This document shows positions 1,311 through 10,708 of a stretch of DNA of 64,000 nt, one piece after another. Numbering within the stretch: the first letter of the stretch is position 1; every line of letters begins with the position of its first letter. Below the pieces are notes generated by a model. That model saw only the letters and a list, made by a program, of their open reading frames with translations, was not told the origin of the DNA and made no database searches. The stretch comes from an uncultured Flavobacteriaceae bacterium (lineage in GTDB: Bacteria > Bacteroidota > Bacteroidia > Flavobacteriales > Flavobacteriaceae): NCBI GenBank assembly GCA_947494695.1, contig CANLWB010000004.1:1-64000 (forward strand), given 5' to 3'. The position numbers and the translations under genes were made by a program.

Positions 1311-2222
1311 ATGAAAAAATTAGATGAATCATTTTTAAAAACAATAATCAATTCTAATGGTAGTTTGACTCAATATTTAATTGAAAATAAAAATAGTATT
1401 AATGAAGATTTAAATAAACGAGGGGCTATTTTATTTAGAAATTTTGATATTAACTCTGTTAATGAATTTCAAGAATTTATTTTGAGTTTAGAAAAAAACA
1501 CATTAGAATATAAATTAAGATCGTCTCCAAGAAATGCAATAGGGGACAACATATATGTATCGACAACTTATCCCAAGACCCAAAAAATAAATATGCATAG
1601 TGAAAGCTCTTACGCTATGCATAGCCCATCTAATATTATATTTTGTTGCGTGCAACCAGCTATTTCTGGTGGAGAGACTCCAATAGCTGATAATAGACTT
1701 GTACTTGACTATATTGACGATAAAATTATTGAGAAAGTTAAAACGCATGGCATTTTATATAATAGAAATATGGGAGGTTTTATGGGGATGAAATGGGAAG
1801 AAGTGTTTCAAACTTCTGATAAAAATGAGGTAGAAAATATTTGTCAGGAAAATAAAATAAACTTTGAATGGAAGAATAGCAATCATCTATCAATTAATTG
1901 GAAAAAGAAGGGAATATGGGAGTCTCCAATTTCAAAGGAACTTGTTTGGTTTAATCATGCTATGTTTTTTAATAAGTTAATTGCATTTCCTGAACTTCTT
2001 GATTTTGTTTCTTCTGATGATGAACTACCAAGTAATACATATTACGGAGATGGTAGTGAATTTTCTAAAGGGGAAATAGAAAATATTAAGAAAGCATATA
2101 ATAAAGCAACTATAGAGTTTGTTTGGAAAAAAGGGGATGTTTTGTATTTGAATAATATGCTGATATCACATGGAAGAAATTCGTATGTAGGAGAAAGAGA
2201 AATTATCGTATCTATGTATTGA
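1311..2222 (+). CDS. TauD/SyrP-like Fe(II)/2-oxoglutarate-dependent oxygenase
   Basis: The 303-residue protein has the TauD-family iron site: H96-S-E98 (HxE variant of HxD), inside a segment followed by the typical PAISGGETPIADN stretch. The distal His is in LISHGRNS (H287), and Arg residues ~9 positions later can bind 2-oxoglutarate. The Glu replacing Asp in the HxD/E triad is known in this family. In NRPS clusters such SyrP-like enzymes usually beta-hydroxylate an amino acid, often while it is tethered to a carrier protein. That fits its place directly after the NRPS end, but the substrate is inference. It stands alone, with 254 bases before it and 540 after, so it may have its own promoter. 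Confidence 0.88.
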   Translation: MKKLDESFLKTIINSNGSLTQYLIENKNSINEDLNKRGAILFRNFDINSVNEFQEFILSLEKNTLEYKLRSSPRNAIGDNIYVSTTYPKTQKINMHSESSYAMHSPSNIIFCCVQPAISGGETPIADNRLVLDYIDDKIIEKVKTHGILYNRNMGGFMGMKWEEVFQTSDKNEVENICQENKINFEWKNSNHLSINWKKKGIWESPISKELVWFNHAMFFNKLIAFPELLDFVSSDDELPSNTYYGDGSEFSKGEIENIKKAYNKATIEFVWKKGDVLYLNNMLISHGRNSYVGEREIIVSMY

Positions 2223-2762: not shown

Positions 2763-3713
2763 ATGCGAGATGCAATAGAAAAAGAAAAAGCTTTTAAATT
2801 GATTAATAAAGATGTCTTGCGAACTCCTAAATTGTATAGCACTGGGCATTCTTTTTGTCATCATGGAGAAATATTACAAGGCGTTTTTTATAATGATCAT
2901 TATAAGGATTATGTATATGGATTGACAACATTCAAATGCAATTTATTTTATTCTAAGGCTAGTTTTATTAAAAATGAAAAATCTAATCAAATAACAATAT
3001 ATCCTAAGGATAAAATTAAAGCAAAAATAGCTGCAGAAAAAATTCTAAACTTTTGTGATTTATCGATTGGAGGTAGTATTGAAATTCAAAGTAATATTAT
3101 TCCGATGGTTGGCTATGGTTCATCGACTGCAGACGTTCTATCAACTATTAGTGCCATAACGAATATGTTAGAAATTGATTTAAAAGAAGAGAGCATTGCA
3201 AAATTAGCAATCTTGTCGGAACATGCTAGTGATAGTTTGATGTTTAAGAAAGAGGTTTTATTTGCCCAAAGAAAAGGGGTGGTTTTAGATACATATAATA
3301 ATATGTTTCCTGCGTTTATCGCTTTAGGTTTTACCCATGATCCAAATGATAATGGTTTTAATACTTTAAGTATGAAACCATTAAAGTACTCTGTTAACGA
3401 ACGCATAGAATTTCAAAAATTAAGGAACCTTTTGTCTCATGCTTTTGATAATCAAGATATTTCAATGTTGGGAGAAGTTTCAACCCGATCAGCTTTAATT
3501 AATCAAAGGTATTATCCAAAATCAAATTTGGATGCTATAATAAAAATTTGTAGTAAATATGATGCGGTTGGAGTTCAGGTCTCACATTCGGGTAGTCTGG
3601 TAGGAATCATATGGAATCCATCCTGTTCACAAATATTTGAAAAGATTGAAATGGTAAAAGAAGAATTAATGAGGTTTAATATTGCTTCCACATGGACATT
3701 TAACAATTTTTAA
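2763..3713 (+). CDS. GHMP-family kinase, PduX-like (putative L-threonine/serine kinase)
   Basis: The 316-residue protein has the GHMP-kinase layout. Its N-terminal motif GHSFCHHGEILQG (~28-40) matches the 'CGELxQG' signature of PduX-type L-threonine kinases. The glycine-rich phosphate loop is PMVGYGSSTAD (114-124). PduX makes O-phospho-L-threonine for cobalamin side-chain synthesis, but no cobalamin genes are near. Instead the gene sits 2 bases upstream of a cysteine-synthase-like PLP enzyme, which would use an O-phospho amino acid as an activated substrate. I infer that it phosphorylates Thr (or Ser) as the first step to a beta-amino-substituted amino acid for the NRPS. The family call is firm; the substrate is inference. 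Confidence 0.82.
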   Translation: MRDAIEKEKAFKLINKDVLRTPKLYSTGHSFCHHGEILQGVFYNDHYKDYVYGLTTFKCNLFYSKASFIKNEKSNQITIYPKDKIKAKIAAEKILNFCDLSIGGSIEIQSNIIPMVGYGSSTADVLSTISAITNMLEIDLKEESIAKLAILSEHASDSLMFKKEVLFAQRKGVVLDTYNNMFPAFIALGFTHDPNDNGFNTLSMKPLKYSVNERIEFQKLRNLLSHAFDNQDISMLGEVSTRSALINQRYYPKSNLDAIIKICSKYDAVGVQVSHSGSLVGIIWNPSCSQIFEKIEMVKEELMRFNIASTWTFNNF

Positions 3714-3715
3714 TT

Positions 3716-4747
3716 ATGATATATAATGATTTAATAGAACTTATTGAAGTTCCCAAAGTGCTTAAACTATCTGATAATTTATATGCTTTAAAGTTTGACT
3801 TGATGAAGTTACTACCAGCACGGTATATTATAGAAAAGGCATTAGAAAATGGTGAACTAACTAAGGATATGACTGTTGTGGAATCGAGTTCAGGTACTTT
3901 TGCTTTGGGATTGGCCTTAGTTTGTTCGAAACATAAAATTAAGCTAATAATAATTGGTGATCCTGCAATCGATAAAAAGTTGAAATCCAAATTAGAGATG
4001 TTAGGGACTATAGTTGAAATTATTGAACCAATAGAAGGTATTGGGATACAAAAACTACGATTAGATAGACTGTATGAAATTAAAAATGGGTCTAATAATA
4101 TGTATTGGCCTAATCAGTATGATAATCCTCGTAATTCTGAATCCTATGGTTTGGTGGCTGATCTAATAAAATCTACAATGGGGAAATTAGATTGTTTGAT
4201 TGGACCAGTCGGTTCAGGAGGTTCCATGTGTGGTATAGGTCGTTATCTAAGAGAATCAAATAAAGATCTTAATATGATTGGTCTTGATACTCATGCAAGT
4301 GTTCTATTTGGACAAAATGATGGCCCTAGACCATTTAGAGGGCTTGGAAATAGCGTTTATCCCAAAAATTTGAAGCAACATATGTTTGATGAAATACATT
4401 GGATCAATGCAAATCATGCATATTTAGCTTGTAAAGTAATGTATAAAGGAACAGGTATGTTTATGGGAGGGACCAGTGGCGCTTCTTATCTAACCGGGGT
4501 ACTATGGTCAAAGACTAATAGTGATAAAAAAACACTTATAATATTACCTGATGAGGGGTATAGATATGAAGACACAATTTATAATGACGAATGGTTAAAG
4601 TTAAATAATCAATATGCCAATAATCTTCCTAAAGTACCTGTATTGGTAGATGATCCTTTGAATTGTAAAAGAATCGAATGGAATTATATGCATTGGAATA
4701 GAAGGGAAATCGAACATGTCCAATTAGAATTAAAAGAAAAGATATGA
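3716..4747 (+). CDS. Cysteine-synthase-family PLP enzyme (beta-replacement of an O-phospho amino acid)
   Basis: This 343-residue fold-type II PLP enzyme belongs to the CysK/SbnA group. The usual SxKDR segment is altered, but K31 aligns with the Schiff-base lysine, just before the conserved helix ending IIEKALENGEL. ESSSGTFALGLA (~56-67) matches the asparagine/substrate loop, NQYDNPRN is conserved, and GPVGSGGSMCG (~160-170) is the phosphate-binding GTGGT loop. Such enzymes add a nucleophile to an aminoacrylate formed from O-acetyl- or O-phosphoserine; SbnA uses O-phosphoserine and glutamate in staphyloferrin B synthesis. Here the preceding kinase would supply the phospho-substrate, and the downstream lyase suggests aspartate as nucleophile. 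The stop overlaps the next start (ATGA), so the two are translationally coupled. Confidence 0.86.
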   Translation: MIYNDLIELIEVPKVLKLSDNLYALKFDLMKLLPARYIIEKALENGELTKDMTVVESSSGTFALGLALVCSKHKIKLIIIGDPAIDKKLKSKLEMLGTIVEIIEPIEGIGIQKLRLDRLYEIKNGSNNMYWPNQYDNPRNSESYGLVADLIKSTMGKLDCLIGPVGSGGSMCGIGRYLRESNKDLNMIGLDTHASVLFGQNDGPRPFRGLGNSVYPKNLKQHMFDEIHWINANHAYLACKVMYKGTGMFMGGTSGASYLTGVLWSKTNSDKKTLIILPDEGYRYEDTIYNDEWLKLNNQYANNLPKVPVLVDDPLNCKRIEWNYMHWNRREIEHVQLELKEKI

Positions 4748-7434
4748 CTTTTGATAAAAATGACGCTTTAGTTTTAATAGAAAGCAATACTTCAGGAACT
4801 GGTTATGTATTAGCGTCTATAGCTAATGAAAAAGGGATCAAAGTATTTTTAATAACTGATGGGTTAACGCAATACAGGTTTGATGATTTTGTGACAAAAT
4901 TGATAACCGATACCTCAAATCTAGATCATATAAGAAGAGAAATAACTAAATTATCTGAATCTTTTATAATAAGAGGTATTACTTCTACCTCTGACTATTA
5001 TCTAGAGACTGCAACAATGGTAGCTGAAAAATTTAATTGTTCACATCCTTCCTTGGAAACTATAAAACTGTGTCGCAATAAGTTTTTATTCAGAAAAAAA
5101 TTAGACGAAAATGAATTTATAGTGCCCTCATTTAAAGTAATCAATAATTTAAATGAGCTTTCTGATTTTTTTCAAAAGGATACAATAGTATTTCCTTTAG
5201 TGGTAAAGCCAATTACGGGGTCTGGTAGTTTAGACGTGAAATTGTTCTATGACAAAAATCATGTTATTTCTCACGCCAAAAATATATTAAAAAGGGAAAC
5301 TAATGATAGAAACCAAAAGATAGATAATTCTATTTTGATTGAAGAATATTATATAGGAGAGGAATATTCATTAGAACTTTTCGATGGAAAAATAATTGGA
5401 GGTACTAAAAAATATAAAGGAGAATTGCCTTATTTTATTGAAACAGGCCATGATTTTCCGTTCCAATTTGATGAAGAGACTCAAGAACAATTAGATTCAT
5501 TAATTATGCGATTAGTTAAAATAATGGATTTAAGTTGGGGAGCTTATCACATTGAATTTATTAAAAATGAAAAAGGGATATGTATAATTGAGATAAACCC
5601 ACGATTAGCTGGAGGCTTTATCCCAGTATTGATCAAGGAGTCTATTGGCATTGACATAATTGAAATCCTATTAAATAAAGTGTTGAATGAAAGGGTGAAT
5701 TTAACTAGGACAGATAGTCTTTATTCGAGTATTCGTTTTCTTATTCCAAAACAAGAAGGGAAGATGAAAATAAAAATTGAAGACAAGTTATTTAGAAATA
5801 ATACATCATCGGTTCAGTATAAATTGTATAGACCAGAAGTGAGTAAGTTTACAAGGAATAATAATTTTAAGGATAGAATTGGACATGTTATAACTACAAA
5901 TATTCACAAGAATAAGGCGATTTCCGATTGTAATGAATTAATGAAAAATGTAATGGCTGAAATTGAATATGAAGAATTAAGTGCTACAGGAAGGCTAAAT
6001 AAAGGGATTCATAAAAATATACGTAAAATAATATTCGGTGATGTCACTAGTGTTAAAGATATAACAGAATTGCGATTACTTTCTAAAATTAATAGAGCAC
6101 ATTTGTTAATGTTAATAGAAGAAGGTATTTTATCAAGTGAAGTAGGAGTTCAATTGTTACATCATATTGTGGAATTTGAGAAACAAGAATTTCTACCGCT
6201 CTTGAATTGCGAAGCGCCTAGAGGGCTTTACATGCAATATGAAAAGTATTTTATTGATAAACTGGGTATGGATGTGGCGGGTTCAATGCATATTGGACGA
6301 TCTCGAAATGATTTAAACGCGACGCAAGCAAAAATAGAATCCAGAGAGTATACAGCTGAAATTTTAAAAGAGTTAATTGATTTTGGCATTGAATTAAGAG
6401 CTGTGTCAAAAAAGCATATTACTACTGTTATGCCAGCCTATACGCATTATCAGCCTGCTGTTCCAATTACGTACGGATTTTATTTGCAAGGAGTATTATT
6501 TTCATTAGTTGATAAAATTGATTCTTTTTTTAATATTCTTAAATCTTTAGAAGAATGTCCTTTAGGTAGTTGTTCTGTAGGAGGTACATCCATTCCAATT
6601 AATATGAATACTACGGCAAAATGTTTAGGATTTCAAAAGTCTGTTAGTAATGCAATTTATGCTGTAGCTACCAGAGATTTTTGGCTGGAATTATTAAGTG
6701 CTATATCTTCTACCAGTGTATTAATTAGTAGGATTTCTGCTGATTATTTATTATGGAATACTCAGGAATTTAACTTTTTTAACCTTACTGATAATATTAC
6801 TGGCTCAAGTTCTATTATGCCAAATAAAAGAAATCCATTTATATTAGAAAATATTCAAGGTAAAATGGGAGTAATTTCTGCCTCTTTTTTAGGAGCTATA
6901 ACAGCAATGCAAAAAACACCATTTACAAATTCTATAGCTGTTGGTACGGAATCCAAAATGTTTTTGACTAAAACGATTGAGGAATTCATAAACTCCATTA
7001 AATTGCTTAAGATATTTATTCTTAACTCAAGCCCAAATGATCAAATAATGAAAGACAAAGCCTCGTCTTCTTATACAATGGCAACAGAGTATGCCAATAA
7101 ACTGTATACAGAATATAACATCCCTTTTAGAGATGCTCATTATACTATTGGCAAAGCCATACGTGAATCGGTTCAAAAAAACACTTTTTTGGAACATTCA
7201 GATCTTTTGAAAGCTTTTCAGCTGGAGAGTGATTTGGATCAAATTGTAAAAGATTCAAAATATGGCGGAGGTCCTGCAGAGGAAAATTTAATCAAAGAGA
7301 ATAAAAATTTAAAAAAGAAATTTGATAAACGGTTGAAAAGACTTTCTAAATACCGAATGACATGGAATAATGCCGATGAATTATTGAATGAAAAGACTCA
7401 AGAATTACTCGACTTGTCTGGAAAAGTTAGTTAA
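4744..7434 (+). CDS. ATP-grasp / argininosuccinate-lyase-like fusion protein
   Basis: This 896-residue protein joins two enzyme families. Residues ~1-400 are an ATP-grasp ligase, with the ATP-binding lysine in KPITGSGS (K155) and the Mg-binding strand EINPRLAGG (E283, N285). Residues ~405-896 are an argininosuccinate lyase/fumarase-superfamily domain, with the SRND signature (520-523), THYQPAVPIT (canonical HxQxAxP) and the catalytic-serine loop GSSSIMPNKRNP (687 onward). All three lyase signatures are intact, so activity is likely. In context it would split an aspartyl adduct made by the upstream PLP enzyme into fumarate and a 2,3-diamino acid. The ATP-grasp half may activate a carboxylate for amide-bond or amino-acid addition. 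It overlaps the previous gene by 4 bases. Domain calls are firm; the pathway is inference. Confidence 0.9.
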   Translation: MTFDKNDALVLIESNTSGTGYVLASIANEKGIKVFLITDGLTQYRFDDFVTKLITDTSNLDHIRREITKLSESFIIRGITSTSDYYLETATMVAEKFNCSHPSLETIKLCRNKFLFRKKLDENEFIVPSFKVINNLNELSDFFQKDTIVFPLVVKPITGSGSLDVKLFYDKNHVISHAKNILKRETNDRNQKIDNSILIEEYYIGEEYSLELFDGKIIGGTKKYKGELPYFIETGHDFPFQFDEETQEQLDSLIMRLVKIMDLSWGAYHIEFIKNEKGICIIEINPRLAGGFIPVLIKESIGIDIIEILLNKVLNERVNLTRTDSLYSSIRFLIPKQEGKMKIKIEDKLFRNNTSSVQYKLYRPEVSKFTRNNNFKDRIGHVITTNIHKNKAISDCNELMKNVMAEIEYEELSATGRLNKGIHKNIRKIIFGDVTSVKDITELRLLSKINRAHLLMLIEEGILSSEVGVQLLHHIVEFEKQEFLPLLNCEAPRGLYMQYEKYFIDKLGMDVAGSMHIGRSRNDLNATQAKIESREYTAEILKELIDFGIELRAVSKKHITTVMPAYTHYQPAVPITYGFYLQGVLFSLVDKIDSFFNILKSLEECPLGSCSVGGTSIPINMNTTAKCLGFQKSVSNAIYAVATRDFWLELLSAISSTSVLISRISADYLLWNTQEFNFFNLTDNITGSSSIMPNKRNPFILENIQGKMGVISASFLGAITAMQKTPFTNSIAVGTESKMFLTKTIEEFINSIKLLKIFILNSSPNDQIMKDKASSSYTMATEYANKLYTEYNIPFRDAHYTIGKAIRESVQKNTFLEHSDLLKAFQLESDLDQIVKDSKYGGGPAEENLIKENKNLKKKFDKRLKRLSKYRMTWNNADELLNEKTQELLDLSGKVS

Positions 7435-7697: not shown

Positions 7698-9272
7698 ATG
7701 AGAAAAGATAATAATTTAAAAAAAAATAAGATAATACCATATGTTATACTGGGTGCTGGACCAGGTGGTCTGCAATTAGCATATTATTTTGAACAGAATA
7801 ATATTGATTATTTAATCCTTGAGAAAAGTGATAACGCAGGTAATACATTTGAATACTTTCCAAGACATAGGAAATTGATTTCGATTAATAAAATTCATAC
7901 TGGTTTTGATAATGAAGAAATTAATATGAGATATGACTGGAACTCATTACTGAGCGAGGAAATGAATCCATTATTCAAAACGTATTCTGATGATTATTTT
8001 CCAAATGCAGATAAAATTGTTCAATATTTTCAGGATTATGCCAATTTGTACAATTTGAAAATTAGCTATAATTCAGAAGTGATTAACATTAAAAAAATAA
8101 ATGTTTTTAGTTTAGAAACAAAATCAGGCCAGACATACCTTGCTGAAAAAGTTATAATAGCTACTGGATTATTTAAACCTTATTTACCAAATATTAGAGG
8201 TATAAAAACATGTGATACTTACGTCAATTGCTCAGTAGACCCAAAGGATTTTATTAACAAAAGAGTTTTAATAATTGGGAAAGGAAATTCAGGGTTTGAA
8301 ACAGCAGATAATATAATTGCAACTGCAAGTAAAATACATATATGTAGTCCGAATTCTGTAAAATTAGCATGGAAATCTCATTTTGTCGGTAATTTAAGAG
8401 CCGTTAATAATAATTTATTGGATACTTATCAACTAAAATCTCAAAATGGTGTTATTGATGCTGAAATTTCAGAAATAATTTTAAAAGAAGATGGATATCA
8501 TGTTAGTTTTCATTATAGTCATGCAAATGATGAAATTGAAGAATTGATTTATGATAATGTTATATTATGTGCTGGATTTCAGTTTGATACGTCTTTTTTT
8601 GATAAAAGTACTTTGCCAGATTTGGCTATTGATGATAGGTTACCAAAACAAAAATCAAATTGGGAATCGACCAATGTAGAAAATTTGTTTTTTGCAGGTA
8701 CTTTAACACAAATGAGGGACTATAAAAAATCTACCTCAGGATTTATTCATGGCTTTAGATATAATAGCCGTTGTTTATTTCATATGCTACAAAAGTTAGA
8801 TCGAAACATAGATTGGCCACATGAAGTACTCGAACGATCTCCGGAAATTATTTCTGGTGCAATAATCAAGGATGTGAATGAATCATCTACTTTATGGCAA
8901 CAATTTGGTTTTTTAGGAGATTTGATGGTCATAAATCAGAATGAAGTACTATTTGTTAAAAATATTCCTGTTGATTATGCAAAAGAAGTCTATTGTCAGA
9001 GTTTTAATCATTACTTTATTATAACTTTGGAATATGGAAATGAAATATTTGAAATGGCACCAGATATATTCAGTTTAGAAAGAGTACATAGAAATGATAT
9101 AGAAAATGCTGATAAAAGTTCAGGGCTCCACCCAATATTAAGAGAATTTAAAGATGGCAAACTAGTAAATACGCATCATCTTATTGAAGATTTCGAAAAT
9201 AAATGGGATGAGCATGATATTTACTTTATACCTTTATTAAAATTTTTAAGAAAAAGTTTAAATCGGTCTTAG
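7698..9272 (+). CDS. FOXRED2-like FAD-dependent oxidoreductase / flavin monooxygenase
   Basis: The 524-residue flavoprotein has an N-terminal FAD Rossmann motif GAGPGG (19-24) and a second, NAD(P)-type motif GKGNSG (194-199). This two-dinucleotide layout is found in flavin monooxygenases and FOXRED2-like proteins. The later FAGTLTQMRDYKKSTSGFIHGFRYN resembles the FAD-contact segment of that family. The C-terminal ~130 residues have no motif I recognise. Its place in the NRPS cluster suggests oxidation or N-hydroxylation of a precursor or of the peptide, but the substrate cannot be deduced. A truncated paralogue lies at 10211. The preceding 263 bases are geneless, so it is probably transcribed separately from the kinase/PLP/lyase unit. 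Confidence 0.82.
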   Translation: MRKDNNLKKNKIIPYVILGAGPGGLQLAYYFEQNNIDYLILEKSDNAGNTFEYFPRHRKLISINKIHTGFDNEEINMRYDWNSLLSEEMNPLFKTYSDDYFPNADKIVQYFQDYANLYNLKISYNSEVINIKKINVFSLETKSGQTYLAEKVIIATGLFKPYLPNIRGIKTCDTYVNCSVDPKDFINKRVLIIGKGNSGFETADNIIATASKIHICSPNSVKLAWKSHFVGNLRAVNNNLLDTYQLKSQNGVIDAEISEIILKEDGYHVSFHYSHANDEIEELIYDNVILCAGFQFDTSFFDKSTLPDLAIDDRLPKQKSNWESTNVENLFFAGTLTQMRDYKKSTSGFIHGFRYNSRCLFHMLQKLDRNIDWPHEVLERSPEIISGAIIKDVNESSTLWQQFGFLGDLMVINQNEVLFVKNIPVDYAKEVYCQSFNHYFIITLEYGNEIFEMAPDIFSLERVHRNDIENADKSSGLHPILREFKDGKLVNTHHLIEDFENKWDEHDIYFIPLLKFLRKSLNRS

Positions 9273-9431
9273 GTTTTAGTTCCTATTTCGATTTTTTGAT
9301 TATACTAAATTATTGAATGGATTGTTATGAGTTTTTGGGTTTAATAAATATGTTAAAAGAATAATACTAAAATTATATTGTTTAAGCCTAAACTTACTTA
9401 TCTAAAAAAAAGTATTATTACTAAATTATAT

Positions 9432-10166
9432 ATGAAGTTTATTGGACAATTATTTTTACTTCATTTTGCAGGTGGGAATAAATATTCATTTGATTTCTTA
9501 ACGAAGGAAATCCGAAAAAGAACTAGTGAAATTGAGCTTATTCCATTAGAGTTACCTGGAAGAGGAGCTCGATTCAACGAGGAACTACTACTCGATAAGA
9601 TTAAAGCTATTGATTTTTATGTAAATCAAATTAAAAAAGAAAGAACAAATATTCCTTATCTTGTTTATGGACATAGTATGGGAGCCACTTTAGGGCTTTC
9701 TGTAATAAGAAGGATGGAAAATTATAATGACCCTCCATTACAATTTATTGCAACAGGAAATGCAGGTCCAGGAGTTATAGATAAACTTGATGAAAACTTT
9801 GGCAAAAAAAAGTATCTTTTGAATGATAAAGATTTAAAAAATGAATTAAGAAGATTAGGAGGCGTTCCAGAAGAAATTTTACATGATGATGAATTGTTTG
9901 TTTTTTTTTCAGAAATAATTCGTGCTGATTTCCAGTTACTTGAGGAGAAGGAAAATTATGAAATAGGTATGTCTATTAATACCTCTATAAATGTTTTTAT
10001 GGGGGATGAAGAGAGAACATCAAATCAAATAGATAATTGGAGGAATTATACTAAATCTCATTTTGAAAAACAAATATTATCTGGGAATCATTTTTTTATT
10101 TATAATCATACCAAAGAAATAGTAGATGCTATTTTAGAAAGATTTAGTTGTAAAGAATTAAAATAA
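9432..10166 (+). CDS. Type II thioesterase (TEII)
   Basis: This alpha/beta hydrolase has the type II thioesterase pattern: LLHFAGGNKYSF near the N-terminus, LELPGRGARF, the nucleophile elbow GHSMGA, and a C-terminal His in SGNHFF. TEII proteins remove wrong or stalled acyl groups from carrier proteins and commonly accompany NRPSs. I chose the ATG at 9432 because the protein then begins directly at the conserved first strand (MKFIGQLFLLHFAGG); an in-frame TTG at 9378 would add 18 unconserved residues. Its role in this cluster is clear from context, although its specificity is not. Confidence 0.9.
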   Translation: MKFIGQLFLLHFAGGNKYSFDFLTKEIRKRTSEIELIPLELPGRGARFNEELLLDKIKAIDFYVNQIKKERTNIPYLVYGHSMGATLGLSVIRRMENYNDPPLQFIATGNAGPGVIDKLDENFGKKKYLLNDKDLKNELRRLGGVPEEILHDDELFVFFSEIIRADFQLLEEKENYEIGMSINTSINVFMGDEERTSNQIDNWRNYTKSHFEKQILSGNHFFIYNHTKEIVDAILERFSCKELK

Positions 10167-10210: not shown

Positions 10211-10708
10211 ATGAAAAAAATAAGTCATGAATACCTCATTATAGGAGCCAATCCTTCTGGTTTACAATTAGGACATTTTTTCGAAAATAATGATATGGAT
10301 TATTGTATATTAGAAAAAGATGATTGTTTAGGCAGTTTTTTTTTAAAATACCCTCGATACAAAGATCTTAATTTGATTAACAACGACCATAGAAACTATG
10401 AGAATAATGAACTTTCTTTGAGGTGGGATTTGAATTCCCCTTTTTGTGACAACCCTGATTTACTTTTTAAAAATCATTCAAAGGAACATTTTCCAAATTC
10501 TAATGATTTCGTAAAATACTTAAAAGGTTTTGCAGAATATTATAAATTAAATATCTCTTACAACTCAAGTATTCAAAATATTAAAAAAGATCAAAATGAG
10601 ATCTTCACTATTACATGTGGTGATATAGTTTATAAATGTGAATATTTAATTGTTGCTTCTGGTATACCAAAACAGATTATACCAAAAATTGAAGGAATAG
10701 AAGGATGA
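10211..10708 (+). pseudogene. Truncated FOXRED2-like flavoprotein (paralogue of the gene at 7698)
   Basis: The 165 residues match only the first third of the flavoprotein at 7698-9272, with the same order of blocks: FAD motif, a 'YPRYKDLNLIN' block, 'RWDLNS', 'FPNSNDFVKYL', 'ASGIPKQIIP'. The frame then stops at a TGA where the paralogue has a Cys codon shortly after its 'IRGIK' segment. The FAD motif is degraded to GANPSG (the paralogue has GAGPGG). Nothing clearly homologous to the missing two thirds follows in the next 337 bases. It is therefore best read as a decayed duplicate. A short functional protein is possible but unlikely, because the NAD(P) domain is absent. Confidence 0.75.

What the first reader, a model, noticed from the sequence alone, without database searches (positions are those of the whole stretch)
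2763..7434. Three-gene unit likely making a 2,3-diamino acid for the NRPS
Seen: a PduX-like GHMP kinase, a CysK/SbnA-like PLP enzyme and an ASL-domain protein are coupled (2-base gap, then ATGA overlap) inside an NRPS cluster. Known: PduX-type kinases phosphorylate Thr; SbnA-type enzymes replace the phosphate of O-phosphoserine with an amino-acid nucleophile; ASL-family enzymes release fumarate from aspartyl adducts. As I recall, uridyl-peptide antibiotic clusters (pacidamycin/napsamycin) use a similar kinase/PLP/ASL set for 2,3-diaminobutyrate. Inference: Thr -> O-phospho-Thr -> N-aspartyl adduct -> 2,3-diaminobutyrate + fumarate (or 2,3-diaminopropionate from Ser). Such a set is unusual in Bacteroidota.
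Basis: partly seen in the sequence, partly recalled or inferred. Interest (0 to 1): 0.85.

Follow-up and report, generated by a model that had tools for sequence, protein, structure and literature searches.

The report
Gene set making a diamino acid

Summary
In detail: a GHMP kinase (2763-3713), an SbnA-like PLP enzyme (3716-4747) and an ASL-domain protein (4744-7434), coupled as described, 1.7 kb downstream of an NRPS end (PCP-thioesterase) that is cut by the contig edge. Missed: the third protein (896 aa) is a fusion whose first ~409 residues are an ATP-grasp ligase of L-amino-acid-ligase type, so this is a four-activity cassette. Of 80 loci (the best of 270 PLP relatives), 67 carry all four; ATP-grasp is as constant as ASL. 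ATP-grasp is fused to ASL here, in two rhizobial loci and in 4 of the 80, and to the PLP enzyme in four Streptomyces loci, so it belongs to the pathway. The PLP lysine and two of three SbnA phosphoserine-selectivity residues are invariant in 97 of 97 rows; the third is Gly in all. The kinase profile hits 1 of 395 phylum genomes (this one). Best reading: phospho-Thr (or -Ser) plus Asp, then fumarate release, gives 2,3-diaminobutyrate (or diaminopropionate); the ATP-grasp step is unresolved. No product is shown, and the A domain thought to precede the thioesterase lacks its specificity region. New variant of a known kind.

The parts
2763..3713 (+). GHMP-superfamily small-molecule kinase (316 aa), inferred L-threonine or L-serine kinase
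   Evidence: Pfam GHMP_kinases_N/C over cut-off; model pLDDT 92.4, best PDB match homoserine kinase 4p52; weak match to annotated pduX; GE..QG and G..SS residues invariant in 31 of 31 aligned, window included
3716..4747 (+). SbnA-like fold-type II PLP enzyme (343 aa), inferred beta-replacement on an O-phospho amino acid
   Evidence: TIGR03945 210.9 bits, below its 349.95 cut-off; best PDB matches SbnA 5d84-5d87; Lys31, Arg115, Gln134, Tyr135 and Gly166 invariant in 97 of 97 rows
4744..7434 (+). bifunctional ATP-grasp / argininosuccinate-lyase-fold protein (896 aa)
   Evidence: NF002563 631.9 bits over cut-off 625, residues 8-890
4744..5970 (+). ATP-grasp domain of the fusion (aa 1-409, boundary approximate), L-amino-acid-ligase type
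   Evidence: PF13535 62.9 bits; profile's best PDB match 3vot, L-amino acid ligase BL00235, 135.7 bits; Lys155, Glu283, Asn285 invariant in 8 of 8
5971..7434 (+). ASL-fold C-N lyase domain of the fusion (aa 410-896, boundary approximate)
   Evidence: Lyase_1 and ASL_C2 over cut-off; SRND, THYQ and GSSS.MP.K.N motifs intact; TIGR00838 ArgH cut-off not reached, 264.3 versus 279.5; the genome has a separate ASL gene on C2
1..1056 (+). NRPS C-terminal end: peptidyl carrier protein and thioesterase, open at the contig start
   Evidence: PP-binding 42.5 bits, Thioesterase 63.8 bits; window is contig C4 from base 1
1311..2222 (+). TauD/TfdA-family dioxygenase between the NRPS end and the cassette; possible tailoring enzyme
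   Evidence: PF02668 111.3 bits; BLAST relatives lie in 27 of 80 cassette loci
9378..10166 (+). stand-alone thioesterase (type II), proposed to belong to the same NRPS cluster
   Evidence: PF00975 97.1 bits

Best explanation
A horizontally spread four-activity cassette that supplies a 2,3-diamino acid, most likely (2S)-2,3-diaminobutyrate, to the neighbouring NRPS. Proposed steps: (1) the GHMP kinase phosphorylates L-Thr (or L-Ser); (2) the SbnA-like enzyme eliminates phosphate to a PLP-bound aminocrotonate (aminoacrylate) and adds the amine of L-Asp at C-beta; (3) the ASL domain releases fumarate, leaving the new beta-amino group; (4) the ATP-grasp domain activates a carboxylate with ATP and joins it to an amine, either a ligation of the diamino acid or of an intermediate. 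Shown: fold families, intact catalytic residues, operon coupling, and frequent co-occurrence and fusion of the four functions. Inferred: every substrate and product, Thr over Ser, Asp as nucleophile, and the place of step 4.
For: Families and motifs. 67 of 80 PLP loci carry all four functions. ATP-grasp is fused to ASL in the window, in L036, L037 and in 4 of 80 loci, and to the PLP enzyme in 4 Streptomyces loci, the kind of double fusion expected of partners in one pathway. NRPS motifs lie beside many cassettes. PF06368 methylaspartate mutase lies within about 22 kb of the cassette in 6 of 10 hand-picked genomes; a carbamoyltransferase of the OTC fold follows the cassette in Actinoplanes TFC3, and relatives of that fold act on diaminopropionate (PMC6022934, passages). 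In two plasmids (Bosea, Mesorhizobium) a kinase-PLP pair stands beside a gene annotated threonine synthase. In SbnA, Arg132, Tyr152 and Ser185 select O-phosphoserine (PMC12414870, passages); Arg and Tyr are kept here.
Against: No product, no assay. The PLP enzyme is far below the SbnA equivalog cut-off, and Ser185 is Gly in 97 of 97 rows. In print, friulimicin DabA/DabB are described as VioB/VioK-like, diaminobutyrate as made from threonine and ammonia (PMC10714638, passage), and the gausemycin cluster of strain INA-Ac-5812 lacks the PLP and ASL genes found in that of B188M101 (PMC12471526, passages), so they are not proven necessary for its diaminobutyrate. The scheme does not need an ATP-grasp step. 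The kinase family is wider than the cassette: of four plasmid neighbourhoods read for kinase hits, two have kinase and PLP gene without annotated ASL or ATP-grasp, one a kinase with a longer PLP-enzyme gene, and one a kinase with an NTP transferase and a CDP-alcohol phosphatidyltransferase (PLSDB gene tables are incomplete). No matching A-domain code found.
Confidence: 0.58

Rival explanations
1. The same route from L-Ser: the kinase makes O-phospho-Ser and the set yields 2,3-diaminopropionate, which Bacteroidetes NRPS clusters are known to use.
For: SbnA uses O-phosphoserine and is the nearest solved relative. sbnA/sbnB diaminopropionate subclusters are reported as abundant in Bacteroidetes clusters (PMC9248904, passages).
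Against: Bacteria already have O-phosphoserine from serine synthesis (recalled), so a dedicated kinase argues for Thr. No SbnB-type partner among the ten proteins scanned around the set. The only amino-acid kinase by name in the 60 annotated kinase rows listed is PduX, a threonine kinase.
Confidence: 0.2
2. ATP-grasp and ASL form a net amidation pair, as in purine synthesis: ATP-grasp joins a carboxylate to the amine of Asp, ASL releases fumarate and leaves a carboxamide. Kinase and PLP enzyme then make a different beta-substituted amino acid.
For: ATP-grasp and ASL are fused in the window and in several other lineages; at least three changes of state are forced on a quick PLP tree. ATP-grasp enzymes make carboxylate-amine bonds (PMC6022934, passages).
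Against: In four Streptomyces loci the ATP-grasp is fused to the PLP enzyme instead. The ATP-grasp profile is nearest to L-amino-acid ligases, which I recall as dipeptide-forming.
Confidence: 0.12
3. The set makes an N-succinyl or aspartyl diamino compound (metallophore- or EDDS-like), with the lyase acting in the direction of addition or not on the adduct at all.
For: The ASL profile matches PDB entries 6rx8 and 6g3d (293 and 292 bits) as well as ASL 1tj7 (295); I recall 6g3d and its kin as EDDS lyase.
Against: The set lies beside NRPS genes in this genome and in many relatives; no family for iron or zinc uptake was named among the 19 window proteins scanned in 1-26 kb, two of which matched no family.
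Confidence: 0.08

Closest known systems
PRK02186 / NF002563 'argininosuccinate lyase' (subfamily model, 890 positions, NCBIfam)
   Same: Full-length match above cut-off, so the same ATP-grasp-ASL architecture.
   Different: I read nothing on the function of that subfamily; identity to the fused rhizobial relatives is only about 28-31%.
SbnA (staphyloferrin B; O-phosphoserine plus Glu)
   Same: Fold, PLP Lys, and Arg132, Gln151 and Tyr152 equivalents.
   Different: Ser185 replaced by Gly; 210.9 bits versus cut-off 349.95; neighbours are ASL plus ATP-grasp, with no SbnB among the proteins scanned.
Streptomyces kinase-PLP-ATP-grasp-ASL sets (L034, L040-L044, L047-L052 and others)
   Same: Same four functions in the same order; NRPS motifs close by in many.
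   Different: ATP-grasp and ASL are mostly separate genes there; the A-domain code DALQMAGGF seen in 13 loci is absent from the 11 A domains extracted from this genome.
DabABC of friulimicin and laspartomycin; diaminobutyrate genes of mureidomycin and pacidamycin
   Same: Proposed substrate and product (Thr to 2,3-diaminobutyrate) and a PLP beta-replacement (PMC4052310, passages).
   Different: That review describes DabB as VioK-like; I had no sequences of these clusters, so homology is untested.

Membership tests
GHMP kinase superfamily | GHMP N and C domains over Pfam cut-offs; GHMP fold | tested here: met
   36.7 and 25.3 bits; model versus PDB
PduX L-threonine kinase | Close sequence relation to PduX and activity on Thr | tested here: inconclusive
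   27.9% over 57% of the query to annotated pduX, E 3e-5; activity not testable
SbnA equivalog (TIGR03945) | Score at or above 349.95 bits | tested here: not met
   210.9 bits
SbnA-like phospho-amino-acid beta-replacement enzymes | PLP Lys plus Arg132, Tyr152 and Ser185 equivalents | tested here: inconclusive
   Lys, Arg and Tyr invariant in 97 of 97 rows; Ser185 is Gly in 97 of 97
SbnA/SbnB diaminopropionate pair | SbnB (ornithine-cyclodeaminase-like) partner next door | tested here: not met
   None among the ten proteins scanned in 1-13.7 kb; rest of the genome not searched
Housekeeping argininosuccinate lyase ArgH (TIGR00838) | Score at or above 279.5 bits | tested here: not met
   264.3 bits; the genome has a separate ASL gene
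NF002563 ATP-grasp-ASL subfamily | Full-length match at or above 625 bits | tested here: met
   631.9 bits, residues 8-890
2,3-diaminobutyrate biosynthesis sets | Verified conversion of Thr to 2,3-diaminobutyrate | not testable with these tools
   needs enzymes or product
2,3-diaminobutyrate biosynthesis sets | NRPS A domain that loads the diamino acid | tested here: inconclusive
   Codes SAMHYAGIC, DTESIGTVC, DILQLGMIW, DVSTIGAVC from contigs C18 and C26, whose link to the window is inferred; last A domain cut before its specificity region

The most novel reading that the evidence does not exclude
The ATP-grasp enzyme is an obligatory, so far unrecognised step of a widespread diamino-acid route: the phospho-amino-acid/aspartate chemistry runs on, or ends in, an ATP-made amide (a dipeptide-type intermediate), and the ATP-grasp domain hands substrate to the lyase (here) or receives it from the PLP enzyme (fused Streptomyces forms). 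The proposed three-step scheme would then be incomplete for the many bacterial clusters that carry this set.
Probability: 0.3. Interest if true: 0.6.

Novelty: new variant of a known kind. Interest (0 to 1): 0.45.

Why it matters
2,3-diamino acids shape several peptide antibiotics, and I found no paper that shows how this enzyme set works (ten searches of an open-licence library; most subscription papers are not in it). A Bacteroidota-like member with ATP-grasp and lyase fused into one protein is a compact system in which the role of the ATP-dependent step can be tested directly, and the set is a marker for finding clusters that may load such residues.

Tried and rejected
Rejected: third protein as a plain ASL (it is a fusion); ASL domain as the genome's ArgH; L165 as a uridyl-peptide cluster, which I had suspected from its split NRPS genes (17 neighbouring proteins scanned gave no marker that I recognise).

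Led nowhere: viral contigs (16 pattern matches, 0 relatives); overlaps of 16-400 bases between the ends of the four NRPS contig stretches compared, C24, C26, C12 and C4 (none; C18 was not in that test, and the far ends of C12 and C4 were cut stretches); a first residue count on the PLP family was shifted in numbering and was redone by motif; one search compared a domain with an alignment that contains it and says nothing; an early note counts 75 full ATP-grasp loci, the right sum is 76. Thr versus Ser could not be settled from sequence. Four papers asked for by id are not held.
Full report
What is there. Three ORFs lie at 2763-3713, 3716-4747 and 4744-7434 on the plus strand, coupled by a 2-base gap and an ATGA overlap. 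Pfam and NCBIfam make the first a GHMP kinase, the second a PALP/SbnA-like PLP enzyme, and the third a fusion of an ATP-grasp domain (about residues 1-409) with an argininosuccinate-lyase-fold domain (about 410-896). The whole third protein fits NF002563 above its cut-off (631.9 versus 625 bits).

Active sites. In the PLP enzyme the catalytic Lys and the equivalents of SbnA Arg132, Gln151 and Tyr152 are invariant in 97 of 97 rows (94 different; window included), and the equivalent of Ser185 is Gly in all 97. Arg132, Tyr152 and Ser185 are the residues credited with O-phosphoserine selectivity (PMC12414870, passages). The lyase domain keeps the SRND, THYQ and GSSS.MP.K.N motifs; R and N of SRN are kept in 96 of 96 lyases compared and the His of TH in 90 of 96. 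The ATP-grasp domain keeps Lys155, Glu283 and Asn285, invariant in 8 of 8 aligned, and its profile is nearest in the PDB to L-amino acid ligase BL00235 (3vot, 135.7 bits). The kinase model (pLDDT 92.4) is nearest to homoserine kinase 4p52 (TM-score 0.69); by sequence it reaches annotated Salmonella pduX only weakly.

The unit recurs. A scan of named genomes with the PLP alignment found 270 relatives and kept the best 80. With HMMs built from my own eight-row alignments and score thresholds of my choice, 67 of 80 loci have kinase, PLP, ATP-grasp and ASL; 8 lack only the kinase; 5 lack two functions (L065, L069, L084, L116, L118), of which L065, L069 and L084 show partial matches to what is missing, short loci or contig ends among them. 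Most of the 80 are actinomycetes; others are Azospirillum, Neorhizobium, a cyanobacterium, Acidobacteriota, Chloroflexota, a Melainabacteria bin and an archaeal MAG. Of 401 plasmid records with some match to the fused protein (ordinary ArgH included), I read seven neighbourhoods: all seven show the set, in Streptomyces (three), Sulfuriferula, Azospirillum, Sinorhizobium fredii next to nif genes, and Mesorhizobium, the last two fused as in the window and with kinases of only 24-25% identity that are annotated hypothetical.

The ATP-grasp enzyme belongs to it. In the 80 loci a full ATP-grasp hit is present in 76 and a full ASL hit in 77. Searching 150 Streptomyces genomes with the ATP-grasp alignment (140 have some match, unrelated ATP-grasp enzymes included) gave 30 fetched loci with short flanks: 13 have a strong ASL next door; 6 (L148-L153) have PLP and kinase hits but no strong ASL in the flanks; 11 have neither, four of these with a weak PLP hit. 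Longer stretches around four of the six show PLP and ATP-grasp in one reading frame, and in two of the four a divergent lyase (236 and 240 bits) close by; one of these proteins was confirmed as PALP plus ATP-grasp_4 plus LAL_C2. So ATP-grasp is fused to the lyase in some lineages and to the PLP enzyme in another. On a quick PLP tree the ATP-grasp-ASL fusion needs 5 changes, at least 3 forced by well supported branches; the window sequence is a long branch (1.72) of odd composition without a supported sister, and the tree warns of long branches meeting.

Rarity near home. At E <= 1e-10 the kinase alignment hits 1 of 395 genomes of the phylum, this one. Among 198 relatives (this genome included) 183 have a match to the fused protein, but the best match outside this genome covers only the lyase half (129.5 bits). 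The first 26 kb of the contig have 27.4% G+C against 35.1% for the rest of the window. Together this suggests acquisition from outside, without a visible donor.

The assembly line. The contig starts at window base 1, inside the last carrier domain. Read by motif and by eye, contig C18 (an acyl-AMP-ligase-like start that I take for FAAL, then C-A-T-C-A-T, and a separate C-A end) and C26 (T, stop; C-A-T-C and the start of an A domain) could precede the window's T-TE, and third-position G+C agrees (0.20-0.25 for C18, C26 and the cassette; 0.27-0.32 for the other NRPS contigs), although the last 2 kb of C18 and the first 2 kb of C26 are richer in G+C (38% and 35%). Nothing proves the join; no end overlap was found among C24, C26, C12 and C4. 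A-domain codes on C18 and C26 are SAMHYAGIC, DTESIGTVC, DILQLGMIW and DVSTIGAVC; from memory DILQLG.IW is Gly-like and D.ESIG.VC is Lys-like, so a basic residue is possible. The A domain at the end of C26 is cut before its specificity region. In actinomycetes the cassette keeps company with codes DALQMAGGF (13 loci) or DIWQSTADD (28 loci, plus one variant), neither of which is among the 11 A domains extracted from this genome. The A-domain test is therefore inconclusive.

Links to diamino acids. PF06368 methylaspartate mutase lies within about 22 kb of the cassette in 6 of 10 hand-picked genomes (Actinoplanes TFC3, S. canus, S. griseofuscus, S. muensis, Streptomyces RKAG290, Actinokineospora NBRC 105648); in one (S. 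aureus NRRL B-2808) the only match is on contig C585, whose relation to the cassette is unknown, and in three there is none. This genome has no such gene. In TFC3 an OTC-fold carbamoyltransferase follows the cassette. In print, friulimicin and laspartomycin use DabABC, with DabA VioB-like and DabB VioK-like (PMC4052310, passages); mureidomycin-type diaminobutyrate is said to come from threonine and ammonia (PMC10714638, passage); the gausemycin cluster of B188M101 has PLP and ASL genes, but that of INA-Ac-5812 lacks them (PMC12471526, passages); sbnA/sbnB diaminopropionate pairs are common in Bacteroidetes (PMC9248904, passages).

Verdict. I hold it as a new variant of a known kind: a four-function diamino-acid cassette with a fused ATP-grasp-lyase, in a phylum sample where I found no other copy.

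Noticed in passing
   Followed up: partly
L036 (Sinorhizobium fredii NXT3), L037 (Mesorhizobium sp. 113-3-3): Kinase-like gene, PLP enzyme and fused ATP-grasp-lyase on rhizobial plasmids without NRPS genes listed nearby; in S. fredii next to nif genes.
   Followed up: partly
L171 (Bosea), L172 (Mesorhizobium) plasmids: Kinase and PLP gene pair beside a gene annotated threonine synthase and an acyl-homoserine-lactone synthase, without annotated lyase or ATP-grasp.
   Followed up: no
L057, L064, L067, L070, L090 and similar loci: A conserved Streptomyces cluster: PLP, lyase, ATP-grasp, single NRPS module with code DIWQSTADD, kinase, TauD dioxygenase, and in the two such genomes checked (S. muensis, S. 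canus) a methylaspartate mutase.
   Followed up: partly
window 1-26000 versus 26001-64000: Sharp step in G+C (27.4% versus 35.1%), suggesting an island that ends near 26 kb; it also holds glycosyltransferases and a MurJ-type flippase.
   Followed up: no
window 10211-10708: Short FAD oxidoreductase ORF (165 aa) resembling the N-terminal part of the full-length one at 7698-9272; probably a remnant.
   Followed up: no
L120 4979-13243 (contig C18): NRPS with an acyl-AMP-ligase-like start and an A domain whose code begins with Ser instead of Asp, hinting at a substrate without an alpha-amino group.
   Followed up: no
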